Of a stretch of DNA of 64,000 nucleotides, positions 4,384-31,605 are shown in pieces. The position numbers and the translations under genes are program-made. The notes beneath the pieces are model-generated. The model worked only from the letters and a program-made list of their open reading frames with translations, ran no database searches and was not told the DNA's origin. The first letter of the stretch is position 1. Each line of letters starts with the position of its first letter. The DNA is from Paludibacter sp. (GTDB taxonomy: Bacteria; Bacteroidota; Bacteroidia; Bacteroidales; Paludibacteraceae): positions 1 through 64,000 of the forward strand of contig JAQTTH010000013.1 in assembly GCA_028710895.1 (NCBI GenBank), given 5' to 3'.

Positions 4384-4482
4384 ATGGGAACTTCAAAAAT
4401 TGAATCATTGGTAAAAACAGCTTCGATAATTTTTTCAAGCTATATGTTTGTTCTGGCTATTATGATAGTTGTATTGAAATAA
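4384..4482 (+). CDS. Tandem hydrophobic micro-protein 1 (32 aa)
   Basis: A 33-codon frame: ATG, a short polar start with two lysines (MGTSKIESLVK), then the shared core TASIIFSSYM and a hydrophobic tail ending in lysine. One transmembrane helix is likely (about residues 13-31). It is the most diverged of three tandem copies at the N-terminus but has exactly the same length (99 nt). The core matches copies 2 and 3 in protein while the DNA differs at third codon positions, which supports translation. No known family recognised. Possible classes are a small stress-membrane protein or a type I toxin-like peptide. Confidence 0.7.
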   Translation: MGTSKIESLVKTASIIFSSYMFVLAIMIVVLK

Positions 4483-4525
4483 ATAGTTATACAGGTAAAT
4501 AATTATACTCTAAAAATATAATATT

Positions 4526-4624
4526 ATGAAAACTCTAAACTTAGTTTCATTCGTGAAAACAGCTTCAATTATTTTTTCAAGCTACATGTTGGTTCTAACT
4601 ATTATGATAGTCGTATTAAATTAG
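4526..4624 (+). CDS. Tandem hydrophobic micro-protein 2 (32 aa)
   Basis: The second 99-nt copy, 142 bp downstream of the first in start-to-start distance. It begins MKTLNLVSFVK and continues with the invariant TASIIFSSYM, then a run of Leu, Ile and Val ending in Asn. A single membrane helix is predicted. The ATG is preceded by ATAATATT, as in copy 3. The first 35 nt are identical to copy 3, pointing to recent duplication. Against copies 1 and 3, codons of the core change only synonymously (TCA/TCG, ATT/ATA, TAC/TAT). Function unknown. Confidence 0.75.
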   Translation: MKTLNLVSFVKTASIIFSSYMLVLTIMIVVLN

Positions 4625-4668
4625 ACAATCAGATTTGTAATTAAATGACACCTTTAAAACATAATATT

Positions 4669-4767
4669 ATGAAAACTCTAAACTTAGTTTCATTCGTGAA
4701 AACTGCTTCGATAATTTTTTCGAGCTATATGTTAGTTTTAGTTGCAATGATAATTTTTATCCACTGA
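4669..4767 (+). CDS. Tandem hydrophobic micro-protein 3 (32 aa)
   Basis: The third copy, 143 bp after the second, again 99 nt. The N-terminus (MKTLNLVSFVK) is identical to copy 2, the TASIIFSSYM core is conserved, and the hydrophobic tail differs and ends FIH. The cluster closes with a strong hairpin terminator at 4795-4831, so the three genes probably share one transcript. The 43-44 nt spacers and repeated upstream sequence indicate tandem duplication of a unit containing the ribosome-binding region. Confidence 0.75.
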   Translation: MKTLNLVSFVKTASIIFSSYMLVLVAMIIFIH

Positions 4768-8383: not shown

Positions 8384-8580
8384 TCTATAATTTATAGAAA
8401 CTTAAACTGAGTGTCATTCATGTCTCTCTAATTTATAGAAGCCTAAACGGAGCATCATTCATGTCTCTATAATTTATAGAAGCTTAAACGGAGCATCATT
8501 CATGTCTGTATAATTTATAGAAGCTTAAACTGAGTATCATTCTATATTCTATAAATTATAGAGCTTACTTTGGAGCATTT
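8384..8580. repeat. Array A: five 41-bp units with a 15-bp palindromic core
   Basis: Five direct units at exactly 41-bp spacing. The ATAGA landmark ends at about 8398, 8439, 8480, 8521 and 8562. The core TCTATAATTTATAGA is a palindrome apart from its centre base; unit 5 carries the complementary centre, and units 2 and 4 each have small changes in the left arm. Between cores lies a conserved stretch containing CTTAAACGGAGCATC. No variable spacers, so not a CRISPR. The array lies between the terminator of the preceding gene and the DUF6261 start, about 85 bp before the start codon. Confidence 0.92.
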
Positions 8581-27279: not shown

Positions 27280-28038
27280 TTATGCAACAGTTATCGGCGC
27301 TTCGGTATGTACCTCTTTCCCTGCATTGCGGCGGGTGGTGCGGGCTTTGAGCTGCGTTTTATAATTCGTAATCAGTTCGTTCAATTCGTTAGCCGGAGTC
27401 TGATAGTCGAGGGTATCGTATTCGGTACTGAAAATCTCAAATGTATCGAAAAAGGCTGTCAGGGCTTTATCTGTTTCAGCACGAATGGCAGTGGCATCAA
27501 CTGTTTCAACAGCCGAATCTTCGTGCGTACGTTGTAAGTATAGCGTAGCAAATAGCGTGTTTATGTCGCGCAAATGCTCAATTAAAATAGTCAGATTTAA
27601 TGCTGCTACGGCAGCTTTCACATCGGCACTCGCATCATAATCGGCCAACAGTTTATTAAACTTGTCGGTGTTGTCGTTGTAATTCGATTCGCCGATATCC
27701 TTCCCGTGCTTATTCAAAAAGCGGGTGAGAACCTCCACGTGTGGAGCAACACTCAACGACAATCTTCCAAAGGTTTTTACCTGCTCGGCAATGCCTTTGA
27801 TAAGTGTTTTACGCTCAGTGTTCAAATCGGCCAACTGGTTACTAATGGCGTTGCCCAATTCCTGTGCTTTGATATTGGCCAGGTCGGGCATAAATGCCGT
27901 AAGCCGCTCAAACGCTTTTTTCAGGTGTAACACTTCGGGTTGATACTTCAAAAAAATGGCTACAATCTGGCTCACGAACATACAATACTCGTTATTCCTC
28001 AGATGAGTCAATTTCAAACGGAAAATTGTGACTTTCAT
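27280..28038 (-). CDS. DUF6261 family protein (copy B)
   Basis: 252 residues, mostly amphipathic helices, no signal peptide, recognised as DUF6261-like. The N-terminus IFRLKLTHLRNNEYCMF is typical of the family; the C-terminus has LDYQTPANELNELITNYKTQLKARTTRR. It is distantly related to copy A at 7565-8299. A minus-strand TACTTTTG box at 28083-28090 would give a leader of about 38 nt. The 5 x 41-bp GC-rich array at 28238-28461 lies upstream of that promoter. Function unknown; DNA binding is possible but only a conjecture from the array. Confidence 0.75.
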   Translation of the reverse strand: MKVTIFRLKLTHLRNNEYCMFVSQIVAIFLKYQPEVLHLKKAFERLTAFMPDLANIKAQELGNAISNQLADLNTERKTLIKGIAEQVKTFGRLSLSVAPHVEVLTRFLNKHGKDIGESNYNDNTDKFNKLLADYDASADVKAAVAALNLTILIEHLRDINTLFATLYLQRTHEDSAVETVDATAIRAETDKALTAFFDTFEIFSTEYDTLDYQTPANELNELITNYKTQLKARTTRRNAGKEVHTEAPITVA

Positions 28039-28237
28039 AAACTTGTAATGTTTTATGTGTTAGTAATCGAAAATGATTAACACAAAAGTATAAACAATAT
28101 TTGAGAAATTAATACAAAATGTATAATTATTTTTATCACAATAGTAATTTTATTTGCATAAATAGAACGTTGTTAAGCTAAAAGTCCGATAGATAAAGGC
28201 TTTTGGCTGATACGTAAACTCAAAATTTTTTTTCAGG

Positions 28238-28461
28238 AAAGTCTCCGCCCCGGCCGAAAAGGCAAAATTAGTTGGAAGGGAGCTTCCGTCCCGGCCGAAA
28301 ACGTGCTTTTGTTTCAAAGGGAGCTTTCGCCCCGGCCGATTACGTGCTTTGGTTTCATTTCTTGCTTCCGTCCCGGCCGATTGCATGCTTTTATTTGATT
28401 TCATGCTTTCGTCCCGGCCGAAAGGGCAAATGTTATAAAGTGGTGCAATCGGCCGGGGCGG
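28238..28461. repeat. Array B: five 41-bp GC-rich units plus one inverted unit
   Basis: The core CCCGGCCGA recurs with CGGCCGA starting at 28251, 28292, 28333, 28374 and 28415, an exact 41-bp period. A final inverted core (TCGGCCGGGGCGG, 28449-28461) closes the array. Flanks TTTCG before and CGAAA after the core make an imperfect palindrome; the spacers vary but keep GTGCTTT or GGCAAA motifs. The core is GC-rich in an AT-rich setting. Short frames here (for example 28150-28404) are repeat artefacts. Confidence 0.92.
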
Positions 28462-28467
28462 TGGGAT

Positions 28468-28502
28468 AAAAAAACGGCTGAACCTGTTGGGAGGTTCAGC
28501 CG
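28468..28502 (-). terminator. Terminator of the ATPase/TOPRIM operon
   Basis: An 11-bp perfect stem, CGGCTGAACCT (28475-28485) with AGGTTCAGCCG (28492-28502), loop of 6 nt, followed on the minus strand by seven T. Confidence 0.9.
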
Positions 28503-28544: not shown

Positions 28545-29216
28545 TCAGTCAAGTAGATTTAGCGTTCTAAATGCTTCTTTGATATTGTTTTTAAAATCTT
28601 GATAAGAACTTAAAACTTCTAACTTTTCTAAATCCAAGGCTTGACCAATTGGTAAATATAATTCTGAAATTGTTAAGTCTTTTCTACGCTTTTTTGTATA
28701 TCCCTCTCTTGCAATGCGTATTGCAGTTTCGATACACTCTTTGGGATTTGCAATTACCTCTGGATGACGGTTAATTTGTAATTCATTGTCACTTTTTTCA
28801 GTTCCAATTTCTCGTTTTAATAATTCTTTGTCTGCTAACATCCAAGCTTCGGTTTCTTGAATAGGAATTACAGCAACAACTATTTTACAAAAATTATTCT
28901 CATCTTTTGTTGCTAAGACATCCATTGCTGGCTTAATTCTATTTCGATAAGTATCTTCAAGTTTTTTATTGTCAGCATCTGAATGTATACAGAGTATCAT
29001 CATACCAAAACTATTAAAGCCCAATGATGATGCTTCTAATACCTTTTCAATAAAAGTACTTCCAGATGAAGTTTTTATTTCTTCAATTTCAAAAATGTCA
29101 ATATCGGTATTGCATTCAAATCTTATATCATCAAAAGTACGTTCTATTACACTTTTTAGAAATAATTGGTCGGTAGACCCTTCTCTCATTAAGCCTATGA
29201 AAATCTGCCGTGCCAT
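28545..29216 (-). CDS. TOPRIM-like (DUF4276-type) protein, partner of an AAA ATPase
   Basis: 223 residues. The N-terminal strand IFIGLMREGSTDQLFLKSVIE carries an E-G motif at residues 12-13, and ILCIHSDADNK (about 75-84) carries the D-x-D motif; together these suggest a TOPRIM-type metal site as in OLD-family nucleases and DUF4276/DUF4435 proteins. IPIQETEAWMLAD is also characteristic of that group. The ATG follows the ATPase stop after one base (TGA-A-ATG), so the two are coupled. Function is likely nuclease or effector in a defence-like module; this is inference from fold and partner. Confidence 0.7.
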   Translation of the reverse strand: MARQIFIGLMREGSTDQLFLKSVIERTFDDIRFECNTDIDIFEIEEIKTSSGSTFIEKVLEASSLGFNSFGMMILCIHSDADNKKLEDTYRNRIKPAMDVLATKDENNFCKIVVAVIPIQETEAWMLADKELLKREIGTEKSDNELQINRHPEVIANPKECIETAIRIAREGYTKKRRKDLTISELYLPIGQALDLEKLEVLSSYQDFKNNIKEAFRTLNLLD

Positions 29217-29217
29217 T

Positions 29218-30642
29218 TCATTTAAATTTATCGATTAATGTGTCAAAATCAGCTGTCTCTAAGTAATCTTTGACTTTTGCCTTTGCATATTTTCTCTTGT
29301 TTTCGAGTTCTTGTTCTGTAAATATACCACCAATTGTATCTTTCTCTTGATATCCAGAAAAAGGGTTGTCCATTGTTGTTACACTTAATTTTTGTTTTAT
29401 ACTATTTATTGTAGTCAATCTATTGACCATTTGTGATAAATGTATACTTACATTATTATCATTCATATATAATTCAAGAATATTTCCTACAAGTATTGGT
29501 GAGTGAGTATTTACAATTACCTGACGTAATGGAATGTCCAAGTCACTAAAATCTGTACATAAGTCTTTTAGTAGTTGTGCCATTGCTCCAATCCTAAATG
29601 GATGAATTCCATTTTCGGGTTCTTCAAAGCACAATAAGCCAGTATGCTTATTGTCATACTCTAGAATACACAGTGTTAATATTCTTAATGTTCCCTCAGA
29701 CAAAACTCTTGAGGAATATTCTTTTTTGTCCTTATCTTTAAGTTTGATTAAATATTGTTTATTTTCGGTATCGTCAATAACATCAACTTCTATGAAATTA
29801 GGCAAGAAAGTTTGCAATTTTCTAGATATTTCAACTAATGAGTAAAGATCTTCCTGTTTAATCCTATTTAAAACTGCTGCAAGGTTTTTTCCACTTTGAC
29901 TTAAAACATCTTCACCTGTATTTTTACTCGTTGGGTGTCTCAAATCTTCAGGGTTAAGTTCAAGAAATTTCCAGCTACGCATTTCTTCTCTGGCAGCCAA
30001 TACATGAGGAAAGTCTATAGTATCAAAACTACTCAATACAGTCCTAGTTGCATTTTTCAACGGGAAACGTCTTTTATTCCCTGTAGTTCCATCTTGGGGA
30101 ACTTGCACAGTTGGTATACCATTTTCCTCTTCAGTCTGAATATAAGGAATGCCTCTTTTTCCTGTTACTACTTTGGGTCTCCAATTTTCAATGTTATTTT
30201 TAGTTATTAATCTAATCCATTTATCTTCTTGATGTCTTAGATTCTCTAAACGTTCATAGGCAACTTCCAAATCTTCTATTCCAGTTGGATTTGTAAATCT
30301 TCTAATTTTAAGTTCATAGCGTAATCGAGTATATTTCAATGTAGCTTCATTACCCCATGCATCTTTAACCTTATAATTGACCAACATTTCTACAGCAAAA
30401 TCAATTTCTGAGGCATAAACATTTTCACCGTACAATGTGAATAGTTCCAAAAATTCCCCACGCTGTTCTTTGAAAGCCTTTTTAAGATTATCTGTGTCAG
30501 CCAAACGGCTTAATAACTTCAATGCATCAAATAAATTACTCTTACCCGATGCATTAGTTCCAGCAATCACAGTAAAAGGAGTAAATGCCATTTCAAAATC
30601 ATGAAATGATTTAAAACCATTTATTTTGATATAAGTAATCAT
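29218..30642 (-). CDS. AAA family ATPase (SMC/OLD-like)
   Basis: 474 residues beginning MITYIKINGFKSFHDFEMAF, as in RecF/SMC-like ATPases. Walker A GTNASGKS is at residues 28-35. The signature SEGTLRILTLCILEY, Walker B LLCFEEPENGIHP (about 335-348) and the switch NTHSPILVG are all intact, so it should hydrolyse ATP. The middle carries about 200 residues of helical and strand insert. It forms a two-gene operon with the TOPRIM-like gene that follows. Similar ATPase plus TOPRIM pairs (PARIS, OLD/Gabija-like) defend against phage. AT-rich codon use differs from the flanking core genes. Confidence 0.78.
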   Translation of the reverse strand: MITYIKINGFKSFHDFEMAFTPFTVIAGTNASGKSNLFDALKLLSRLADTDNLKKAFKEQRGEFLELFTLYGENVYASEIDFAVEMLVNYKVKDAWGNEATLKYTRLRYELKIRRFTNPTGIEDLEVAYERLENLRHQEDKWIRLITKNNIENWRPKVVTGKRGIPYIQTEEENGIPTVQVPQDGTTGNKRRFPLKNATRTVLSSFDTIDFPHVLAAREEMRSWKFLELNPEDLRHPTSKNTGEDVLSQSGKNLAAVLNRIKQEDLYSLVEISRKLQTFLPNFIEVDVIDDTENKQYLIKLKDKDKKEYSSRVLSEGTLRILTLCILEYDNKHTGLLCFEEPENGIHPFRIGAMAQLLKDLCTDFSDLDIPLRQVIVNTHSPILVGNILELYMNDNNVSIHLSQMVNRLTTINSIKQKLSVTTMDNPFSGYQEKDTIGGIFTEQELENKRKYAKAKVKDYLETADFDTLIDKFK

Positions 30643-30822: not shown

Positions 30823-31605
30823 ATGGCAGATAAATTTCAAAACAAATATAGGATTCATTCGGCACGTTGGCAGTCGTGGGATTACAGCAGTGAGGGGTTG
30901 TATTTTATTACAATCAACACCGTACAACATTGTTGTTTGTTTGGCAACATTGTGGATAAGGAAATGCATTTATCGGCATATGGCCGGATTGTAGCCGACG
31001 AATGGGACAAATCATTCGCAATCAGACAGGAATTATTTTGCGATGCATTCGTCATTATGCCCAATCATATCCATGCCATTTTACGCATCCAATTTCCCCC
31101 AACCATTGTAGAGCCGCACGGCCGTGCGGCTCTACGGGATACCTACGCCGATGTCAATACCTACGCCAATACCAATACCGATGTCAATACCGATGCCAAT
31201 GCAAACGTTGGGGTAGTTGAACGTTCCAATATTTCTGCAATCATTGTAGAGCCGCACGGCCGTGCGGCTGAAAACGATGGTGTGAATTCGTATTCAGAAC
31301 CGCACGGCCGTGCGGCTGAAAATGATGGTGTGAATTCGTATTCAGAGCCGCACAGTCGTGCGGCTCTACGAGGGGTTGATAATGGAATTGCATATCGCGA
31401 ACCAAAATCGATATCGTCGTTTGTTGCGGGGTTTAAATCGGCAGTCACGGCGCGAATCAATCAATTGCGAAACACGAAAGGACAAGCTGTGTGGCAGTCG
31501 CGCTTTCACGATCATGTTATTCGGGATTTTGAAGAATGTCGGCGTATTGGTGCATACATTGATTCGAATATCGAAAACTGGAAGGATGATCGCTATTATC
31601 AGTGA
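30823..31605 (+). CDS. REP-associated tyrosine transposase (Y1/HUH type) with palindromic insert
   Basis: 260 residues of the IS200-like RAYT family. The metal-binding His pair is in MPNHIHAIL (about residues 78-86). The C-terminal helix GAYIDSNIENW holds the likely catalytic Tyr (about 245), and VWQSRFHDHVIRD precedes it. Between about residues 92 and 190 is a long insert not needed for the fold. It contains four EPHGRAA-type peptides encoded by palindromes, a 16-residue unit repeated in tandem, and an Asn/Thr/Asp/Ala-rich stretch. Start at ATG 30823. RAYTs act on REP palindromes elsewhere in the genome; the frame is open, so it may be active. Confidence 0.85.
   Translation: MADKFQNKYRIHSARWQSWDYSSEGLYFITINTVQHCCLFGNIVDKEMHLSAYGRIVADEWDKSFAIRQELFCDAFVIMPNHIHAILRIQFPPTIVEPHGRAALRDTYADVNTYANTNTDVNTDANANVGVVERSNISAIIVEPHGRAAENDGVNSYSEPHGRAAENDGVNSYSEPHSRAALRGVDNGIAYREPKSISSFVAGFKSAVTARINQLRNTKGQAVWQSRFHDHVIRDFEECRRIGAYIDSNIENWKDDRYYQ
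31108..31369. repeat. REP-like palindromes within the transposase frame
   Basis: Copy 1 (31108-31135) is a perfect 28-bp palindrome with half-site GTAGAGCCGCACGG. Copies 2, 3 and 4 start near 31246, 31297 and 31345. Copies 2-4 are spaced 48 bp apart, a multiple of three, so each encodes EPHGRAA or EPHSRAA in frame. Copy 4 has two changes in the centre. The sequence 31140-31205 between copies 1 and 2 is built from short GATGTCAATACC-like repeats. Confidence 0.9.

What the first reader, a model, noticed from the sequence alone, without database searches (positions are those of the whole stretch)
27280..28502. Second DUF6261 locus repeats the same architecture with an unrelated 41-bp sequence (array B)
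Another DUF6261 gene, 20 kb away, is again preceded by a terminator and then five units at exactly 41 bp, this time built on the GC-rich CCCGGCCGA core with a final inverted unit. The two arrays share period, copy number, position and gene family but not sequence. Independent sequences with one architecture suggest a functional coupling of DUF6261 with phased repeat arrays: perhaps each protein matches its own palindrome.
Basis: partly seen in the sequence, partly recalled or inferred. Interest (0 to 1): 0.75.

Follow-up and report, generated by a model that had tools for sequence, protein, structure and literature searches.

The report
Protein paired with private phased arrays
Bacteria of the Bacteroidota carry a family of small unstudied proteins whose genes usually sit beside a short row of near-identical DNA marks spaced about four turns of the helix apart, with a different mark for different proteins, which points to a new kind of protein-and-DNA-array system.

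Summary
In detail: array B is five direct sites exactly 41 bp apart plus one inverted site, upstream of a DUF6261 gene; array A has the same layout with unrelated sequence. Of 89 DUF6261 genes, 58 have an array within 500 bp upstream (57 of 58 at 41/42 bp or double) and 7 more have one downstream; 12 of 20 genes from other genera have one upstream. In surveyed sequence of the same genome it is 5 of 6 DUF6261 genes against 15 of 796 other ORFs, 10 of those 15 beside 21-bp arrays. Of 246 adjacent site spacings, 230 are 41 or 42 bp.

Site sequence and spacing follow the protein's relatedness. Four of six cores tested have a second array elsewhere in the genome without a DUF6261 gene, two of them between convergent ORFs. 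G.T changes do not exceed A.C, so RNA hairpins are unlikely.

Best reading: DUF6261 proteins bind their own array on double-stranded DNA as architectural proteins. Binding is inferred, not shown. A second unnamed family pairs with 21-bp arrays.

The parts
27280..28038 (-). DUF6261 (PF19775) gene, 252 aa, predicted all-helical protein with a low-confidence C-terminal tail
   Evidence: Pfam E 1.8e-19; AlphaFold2 mean pLDDT 86, nine helices, no strands, residues 242-252 below 50
28083..28090 (-). Promoter-like element TACTTTTG (TAnnTTTG), 52 bp before the start codon, between array and gene
   Evidence: L008 at -52; at -50 to -52 also in L007, L105, L106 and L110; the consensus itself is recalled, not from a call
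28241..28421 (-). Array B: five direct units of 41 bp, gene-sense core TCGGCCGGGRCGRAA
28449..28461 (+). Sixth, inverted core of array B, dyad centre 40 bp from the fifth
   Evidence: inverted repeats I3, I4
28468..28502 (-). Terminator-like hairpin with T-run, first conserved element of the duplicated cassette
   Evidence: similarity of L007 and L008 begins here; present in the orphan copy in L133; similar hairpins by eye in L104 and L105
7565..8299 (-). DUF6261 gene of array A (244 aa)
   Evidence: C15:7640-8089, 83 bits
8384..8562 (-). Array A: five dyads TCTATAAWTTATAGA (two with one mismatch), 41 bp apart

Best explanation
Each DUF6261 protein is a dedicated, sequence-specific binder of double-stranded DNA. 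It reads a dyad of about 13-19 bp: outer TT/AA positions common to many arrays, plus an inner palindrome private to that protein or its close kin. About five sites are placed four helical turns apart (41 or 42 bp, depending on the protein clade), so they lie on one face of the helix and an elongated helical protein can assemble over the array. The array lies beside the gene and often at one further chromosomal locus, so the most likely job is architectural: a nucleoprotein filament, or a bridge between the two arrays. It does not look like an ordinary promoter operator or an RNA. New copies arise when the terminator-array-gene cassette, or the array alone, is copied elsewhere; core and protein then diverge so that copies do not cross-react. 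Shown: architecture, enrichment, spacing, dyad symmetry, covariation, trans arrays, cassette copies. Inferred: binding, helical phasing as the reason for the spacing, filament or bridge, selection for orthogonality.
For: Enrichment: 58 of 89 genes upstream, 57 of 58 at 41/42 or double, plus 7 downstream at lag 42; 12 of 20 judged loci of other genera, all 12 at 41, 42 or 83; 5 of 6 versus 15 of 796 other ORFs. Spacing: 230 of 246 adjacent spacings at 41/42, 3 at 40/43 (56 arrays). Period follows protein: pairs 50-90% identical share period in 88%, against 50% in permutations, 0 of 5000 reaching it. Core follows protein: for pairs 30-50% identical, core z 3.1, linker z -0.3; 15 and 3148 of 5000 permutations reach the observed value. 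Dyad symmetry exceeds all 20 column shuffles in 36 of 70 arrays, 3.3 expected; the innermost pair is kept best, 91%. Trans arrays with the same core and period for 4 of 6 cores; for the L003 core 84% core but 26% linker identity between cis and trans consensus. Two trans arrays lie between convergent ORFs. Cassette duplication with differing cores.
Against: No binding data. No recognisable DNA-binding domain; Foldseek against the PDB gave nothing at E<=0.001, best 0.03. 24 of 89 genes have no array at 41/42 on either side, and 8 of 20 in other genera have none upstream. Two of six cores (L007, L009) have no full trans array. For the L004 pair linkers are as similar as cores (0.91 and 0.89), so that copy is simply recent. 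For protein pairs 50-90% identical linkers also rise (z 7.5), so common descent explains part of the core likeness. The excess of compensatory stem changes (19 versus 9.3 in shuffles) would also fit a hairpin. 24 of 56 arrays have a promoter-like element before the first site, so many arrays may be transcribed. Residues 172-192, where L007 and L008 differ, are not unusually variable in the wider subfamily. The two largest protein clades (17 and 12 arrays) and one of 3 mix periods 41 and 42. The dyad axis was chosen on the data then described; the 20-shuffle null is the only guard.
Confidence: 0.6

Rival explanations
1. Autoregulatory operator cluster: DUF6261 is a transcription regulator and the array is an upstream operator or enhancer for its own gene and for a trans target.
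For: 58 of 89 genes have the array upstream. Promoter-like elements at -50 to -52 sit between array and gene in five loci of the array-B subfamily.
Against: The promoter-like element is before the first site in 24 of 56 arrays and after the last in 12 of 56, so the geometry is not fixed. Seven genes have the array downstream instead. Trans arrays of array A and L003 lie between convergent ORFs.
Confidence: 0.2
2. Selfish mobile module: arrays are recognition ends of a non-autonomous element, DUF6261 is its maintenance or mobilisation protein, and orphan arrays are its miniature copies (REP/RAYT-like logic).
For: Cassette copied from terminator to stop codon. Terminator and array alone copied to C24. 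Patchy distribution: 24 of 60 genomes (own and relatives) and 11 of 395 drawn over the phylum are over the cut-off.
Against: No recombinase domain found in the proteins scanned against Pfam, NCBIfam, PADLOC and PHROGs. Few copies. The L003 core is preserved while linkers fall to 26% identity, which dead copies would not show.
Confidence: 0.15
3. RNA system: the array is transcribed as a multi-hairpin RNA that DUF6261 binds.
For: TAnnTTTG elements are commoner on the gene strand before the array (29 versus 6 on the other strand, 76 arrays). Compensatory stem changes 19 versus 9.3 in shuffles.
Against: Single changes to G.T (48) do not exceed those to A.C (57); over all cells G.T 50, A.C 81. 23 of 70 fitted dyads have only 0-2 central bases and the innermost pair is kept best, which a hairpin loop would not allow. 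Some downstream arrays (L084, L092) start right after a terminator-like hairpin, leaving no room for a promoter.
Confidence: 0.07

Closest known systems
Bacterial tandem repeats of constant size and variable sequence (Subirana and Messeguer; PMC8161180: abstract, introduction, section 4.1 and search passages seen; PMC6749651: passages seen)
   Same: Short, mostly non-coding arrays of fixed unit length across unrelated sequences, several families per genome, no known function; the authors suggested a protein that needs a constant repeat size to polymerise on DNA
   Different: They report only 20-21 (20-23) and 52 nt; the text I saw names no partner protein. Here the unit is 41/42, the partner is DUF6261, many sites are dyads, and trans arrays share the core. 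The 21-bp arrays found here may be their 20-21 nt class
REP elements with RAYT transposases (PMC3733652, passages seen)
   Same: A gene with palindromic repeats beside it and further copies elsewhere
   Different: No transposase domain was detected; strict 41/42-bp spacing; few copies
Plasmid iterons and partition-site arrays (recalled)
   Same: Regularly spaced repeats of a binding site next to the gene of the binder
   Different: No replication-initiator or partition family hit; several copies per genome, each with its own site
CRISPR or TIGR guide arrays (recalled)
   Same: Regularly spaced arrays with a dedicated protein gene
   Different: Here the core is the constant part within an array and linkers drift; no set of unrelated spacers is seen

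Membership tests
PF19775 (DUF6261) | Score over the curated Pfam cut-off | tested here: met
   70.6 bits versus cut-off 27
Constant-size, variable-sequence tandem repeats (Subirana and Messeguer) | Same unit length in arrays of unrelated sequence | tested here: met
   230 of 246 spacings at 41/42 in 56 arrays; most array sequences differ between loci
Constant-size, variable-sequence tandem repeats (Subirana and Messeguer) | Unit of 20-21 or 52 nt | tested here: not met
   Units are 41 or 42; the separate 21-bp arrays do meet it
REP/RAYT (REPtron) | Tyrosine transposase (HUH) gene as partner | tested here: not met
   No transposase family hit for the DUF6261 proteins scanned in Pfam, NCBIfam, PADLOC or PHROGs; all-helical model
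REP/RAYT (REPtron) | Demonstrated mobility | not testable with these tools
   Two cassette copies and one array-only copy seen; events not dated
Iteron or partition systems | Replication-initiator or partition family protein | tested here: not met
   No such hit
Iteron or partition systems | Repeated sites at a whole number of helical turns | tested here: met
   41/42 bp spacing, taking 10.4-10.5 bp per turn (recalled); resemblance, not membership
CRISPR or TIGR arrays | Unrelated spacers between constant repeats | tested here: not met
   Linkers within an array are related and drift; no unrelated spacer set seen by eye
Promoter operator cluster | Fixed geometry to a promoter | tested here: not met
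   Promoter-like element before the array in 24 of 56 and after it in 12 of 56; two trans arrays between convergent ORFs

The most novel reading that the evidence does not exclude
A general class of bacterial array-reader systems: small helical proteins, each wedded to its own private dyad, repeated at a whole number of helical turns beside its gene and often at a second chromosomal site, with core and protein diverging so that many copies in one cell stay orthogonal. DUF6261 uses four turns; a second family in the same genome, with no detected likeness to it, uses two. The constant-size 20-21 and 52 nt arrays of many bacteria would then be the DNA halves of systems of this kind.
Probability: 0.5. 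Interest if true: 0.92.

Novelty: categorically new. Interest (0 to 1): 0.85.

Why it matters
Bacterial repeats of constant size but variable sequence have been described as enigmatic, with a DNA-polymerising protein only postulated (PMC8161180). This work names candidate partner families and supplies matched protein-site pairs, including a near-identical protein pair with different sites, so the question can be tested at the bench. If binding is confirmed it gives a set of mutually orthogonal DNA-binding proteins without any recognised DNA-binding fold, and a new chromosome-architecture or selfish-element system.

Tried and rejected
RNA hairpin array: set aside as the main reading because G.T single changes (48) do not exceed A.C (57) and dyads often run to the centre. 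Promoter operator: geometry not fixed and two trans arrays between convergent ORFs. Terminator as a defining part: only 7 of 56. Strict rule 'one protein, one trans array': 4 of 6 cores only. Fold matches: none at E<=0.001; weak sequence matches only. Viral relatives: 72 pattern matches, none confirmed. Homology between DUF6261 and the 21-bp-array family: not seen (hhalign probability 3.5%). Hypervariable specificity region: residues 172-192 hold all six L007/L008 differences but are not unusually variable in the nine-sequence alignment. Paper searches for a published link: 'DUF6261' occurs in one held paper, on daptomycin resistance in Streptococcus (listing seen only); the listings showed nothing linking it to arrays.

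Rows dropped: of the places listed, one over the cut-off (G004:C285, 27 bits) and one under it were not fetched. L101 (over the cut-off) and L015 (under it) were not found again by my own HMM. L001/L002 were left out as duplicates of L008/L007; of the 99 genes left, 10 with under 300 bp upstream are not in the 89. One of the 89 (L027) is from outside the genus; the rest are from it. In one search, 20 of 21 phylum-wide loci were judged (L122 had no hit; L115 and L121 look like fragments and count as misses). Loci duplicated by named records were left out from then on; of 83 arrays there, 13 had too few units and 70 were fitted, 64 used, 63 for spacing. In one search the four second-family genes in the survey were set aside from the 796. 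The other four downstream signals are at lags 40 (L022), 51, 20 and 98; L022, which also has an upstream array, holds a 40-bp repeat of about three copies there. In one search, 21 of 29 places in relatives were judged (three had no locus, five were short partial matches); a seventh partial copy in the own genome was not checked. The runs ended in errors and were completed. The display counted runs of N as matches in L022; counts do not use it.

Full report
OBSERVATION. The finding is real. The 252-aa gene at 27280-28038(-) matches PF19775 at E 1.8e-19. Upstream of it lie five direct sites exactly 41 bp apart (28241, 28282, 28323, 28364, 28405) and an inverted sixth at 28449-28461. A terminator-like hairpin at 28468-28502 bounds the array. 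Array A at 8384-8562 has five sites 41 bp apart and an unrelated sequence.

ENRICHMENT. The genome holds 12 DUF6261 genes over the Pfam cut-off. Among 60 genomes (own and relatives) 24 have matches, 23 of them in the own genus, counting the own genome. I scored self-matches at lags 20-119 in 500 bp upstream. Of 89 genes with at least 300 bp upstream, 58 reach a score of 25; the largest mean shuffle score was 14. Best lags are 41 (29 genes), 42 (19), 82 (5), 83 (3), 84 (1) and 87 (1). Gene bodies give 0 of 99. Downstream stretches give 11 of 96: seven at lag 42, all in genes without an upstream array, and four at lags 20, 40, 51 and 98. So 65 of 89 have an array of this kind on one side and 24 do not. 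In an even draw of 395 genomes over the phylum 11 have the family over the cut-off, and 12 of 20 loci judged outside the genus have an upstream array, all at 41, 42 or 83. As a control in the same genome, in 1.26 Mb surveyed, 5 of 6 DUF6261 genes against 15 of 796 other ORFs show such a lag upstream. Ten of the 15 also score 34 or more at lags 20-22, so they lie by 21-bp arrays. The other five are C14:147087, a 238-aa ORF with a 42-bp array that scores 33 at those lags; two ORFs that share one orphan array (C15:128520, C15:131618); C15:111424; and a marginal case at C22:329975.

GRAMMAR. Adjacent site spacings in 56 arrays: 101 at 41, 129 at 42, 3 at 40 or 43, 13 others, out of 246. Upstream arrays mostly have five (20 of 56) or six (15 of 56) sites. 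Dyad symmetry exceeds all of 20 column shuffles in 36 of 70 arrays, 3.3 expected; in the other 34 it does not. Aligned on the dyad, consensus units favour T at -8/-7 (58%, 63%) and A at +7/+8 (67%, 66%), then C at +10 (52%); the interior differs. The axis was chosen by maximising symmetry on the same data, so these shared flanks need an independent check.

PROTEIN TRACKS SITE. Protein pairs 30-50% identical have more similar cores than permuted pairs (z 3.1; 15 of 5000 permutations reach it) but not more similar linkers (z -0.3; 3148 of 5000). At 50-90% both rise (z 9.3 and 7.5). Period follows protein too: clades of 8, 6, 5, 5 and 2 arrays have a single period each, while the two largest (17 and 12) and one of 3 are mixed. 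Pairs 50-90% identical share period in 88%, against 50% permuted (0 of 5000 reach it); at 30-50% it is 60% against 49% (93 of 5000).

A NATURAL EXPERIMENT. A second copy of the array-B cassette lies at C10 (L007). Similarity starts at the terminator and ends at the stop codon, with unrelated flanks. Proteins are 98% identical, yet the cores differ in concert while linkers remain alike. Of 28 nucleotide differences in 756, 16 fall in codons 171-197 (17 in the densest 81-nt window; 13 is the most in 5000 permutations), and all six amino-acid differences lie at residues 172-192. The model puts these at the end of one helix, a low-confidence loop and the next helix. This is suggestive only; the segment is not unusually variable in the wider group.

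TRANS ARRAYS. Pattern searches of the own genome with six cores: array B recurs at C24:39021-39160 (four sites, 41 bp), L003 at C22:446806-446989 (five, 42 bp), array A at C14:277973-278151 (five, 41 bp), L004 at C15:131345-131482 (four, 41 bp); a few isolated single sites also turn up. L009 has no second array, and L007 has only one site, inside the C24 array. One search lists no DUF6261 gene at these places. Core versus linker identity between cis and trans consensus: A 0.89/0.50, B 0.89/0.73, L004 0.89/0.91, L003 0.84/0.26. The C24 array looks like a recent copy of terminator plus array without the gene; the L004 pair is recent too; the L003 pair shows a core kept while linkers have drifted to chance. 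Contexts by ORF: C22 and C14 arrays lie between convergent ORFs, C15:131284 between divergent ones, C24 between ORFs in one direction.

DNA OR RNA. In 64 arrays single changes yield 48 G.T and 57 A.C pairs; over all cells G.T 50 and A.C 81, so no wobble preference. Compensatory changes are 19 against 9.3 +/- 2.3 in within-array shuffles. The innermost pair is paired in 91% of cells, and 23 of 70 fitted dyads have 0-2 central bases. This fits double-stranded dyads better than hairpins. TAnnTTTG elements are commoner on the gene strand both before (29 versus 6) and after (22 versus 10) the array, so many arrays may be transcribed; the RNA reading is weakened, not closed.

PROTEIN. AlphaFold2 from nine sequences: mean pLDDT 86, nine helices, pTM 0.63. 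Foldseek against the PDB: nothing at E<=0.001. Profile search of PDB sequences: best E 0.0028, to a Tet4 variant over 72 residues, no stretch passing on its own. No NCBIfam or PHROGs family; the only PADLOC row is JAB at E 0.031.

SECOND SYSTEM. The survey also turned up 13 clusters that list a lag of 21, some overlapping ORFs. A 228-aa family without a Pfam family over the cut-off (one copy carries a weak extra domain) has six copies found; all six have a 21/22-bp array within 1 kb upstream, none downstream. In relatives 17 of 21 homologues judged score 30 or more, at lags near multiples of 20-22 bp. hhalign does not link it to DUF6261.

INTERPRETATION. Spacing that goes with the protein clade, a core that follows the protein, a core kept over linkers in trans, and dyad symmetry together point to a protein that reads its own phased array on DNA. 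The sites' independence from promoters argues for architecture rather than ordinary regulation. The mobile-module reading is compatible with part of the data and may describe how copies arise. Novelty: constant-size repeats are known and unexplained (PMC8161180: abstract, introduction, section 4.1, passages; PMC6749651: passages). I found no report of a partner protein or of a 41/42 class in the searches named in Tried and rejected; one key earlier paper could not be read.

Noticed in passing
L149:3713-4033 (G000 C14:183713-184033) and C14:513335, C14:408281, C14:456626, C4:178593: Arrays of 21-bp units, each with its own sequence, upstream of an unnamed 228-aa family; 6 of 6 copies found and 17 of 21 homologues judged in relatives have such an array.
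   Followed up: partly
L147:7087-8064 (G000 C14:147087-148064): A 238-aa ORF without a Pfam hit over the cut-off has a 42-bp array just upstream; it may be a diverged DUF6261 relative or a third family.
   Followed up: no
G000 C15:112342-112587 (in L168): An orphan 41-bp array with units such as CCTGCAGCGTGCAGG; by eye no DUF6261 array of this genome has that core.
   Followed up: no
window 30823-31605 (+): ORF with an MPNHIHAILR stretch resembling REP-associated tyrosine transposases (motif recalled; Pfam gave no hit) that overlaps a 48-bp repeat with a GC-rich palindrome.
   Followed up: no
window 28545-30642 (-): DUF4276 gene next to an AAA_21 (AbiEii-like) ATPase gene directly upstream of the array-B cassette; possibly a defence pair (Pfam; the role is recalled).
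   Followed up: no
window 4405-4737: A 143-bp tandem repeat, 2.3 copies, downstream of an ORF that looks like an ABC-F ATPase (the name is recalled).
   Followed up: no
L075, L084, L092 (downstream of the DUF6261 stop codon): In some DUF6261 clades the array follows the gene, starting right after a terminator-like hairpin, with lag 42.
   Followed up: partly
L022, 166-287 bp after the DUF6261 stop codon (gene sense): A 40-bp repeat of about three copies lies downstream of a gene that also has a 42-bp array upstream.
   Followed up: no
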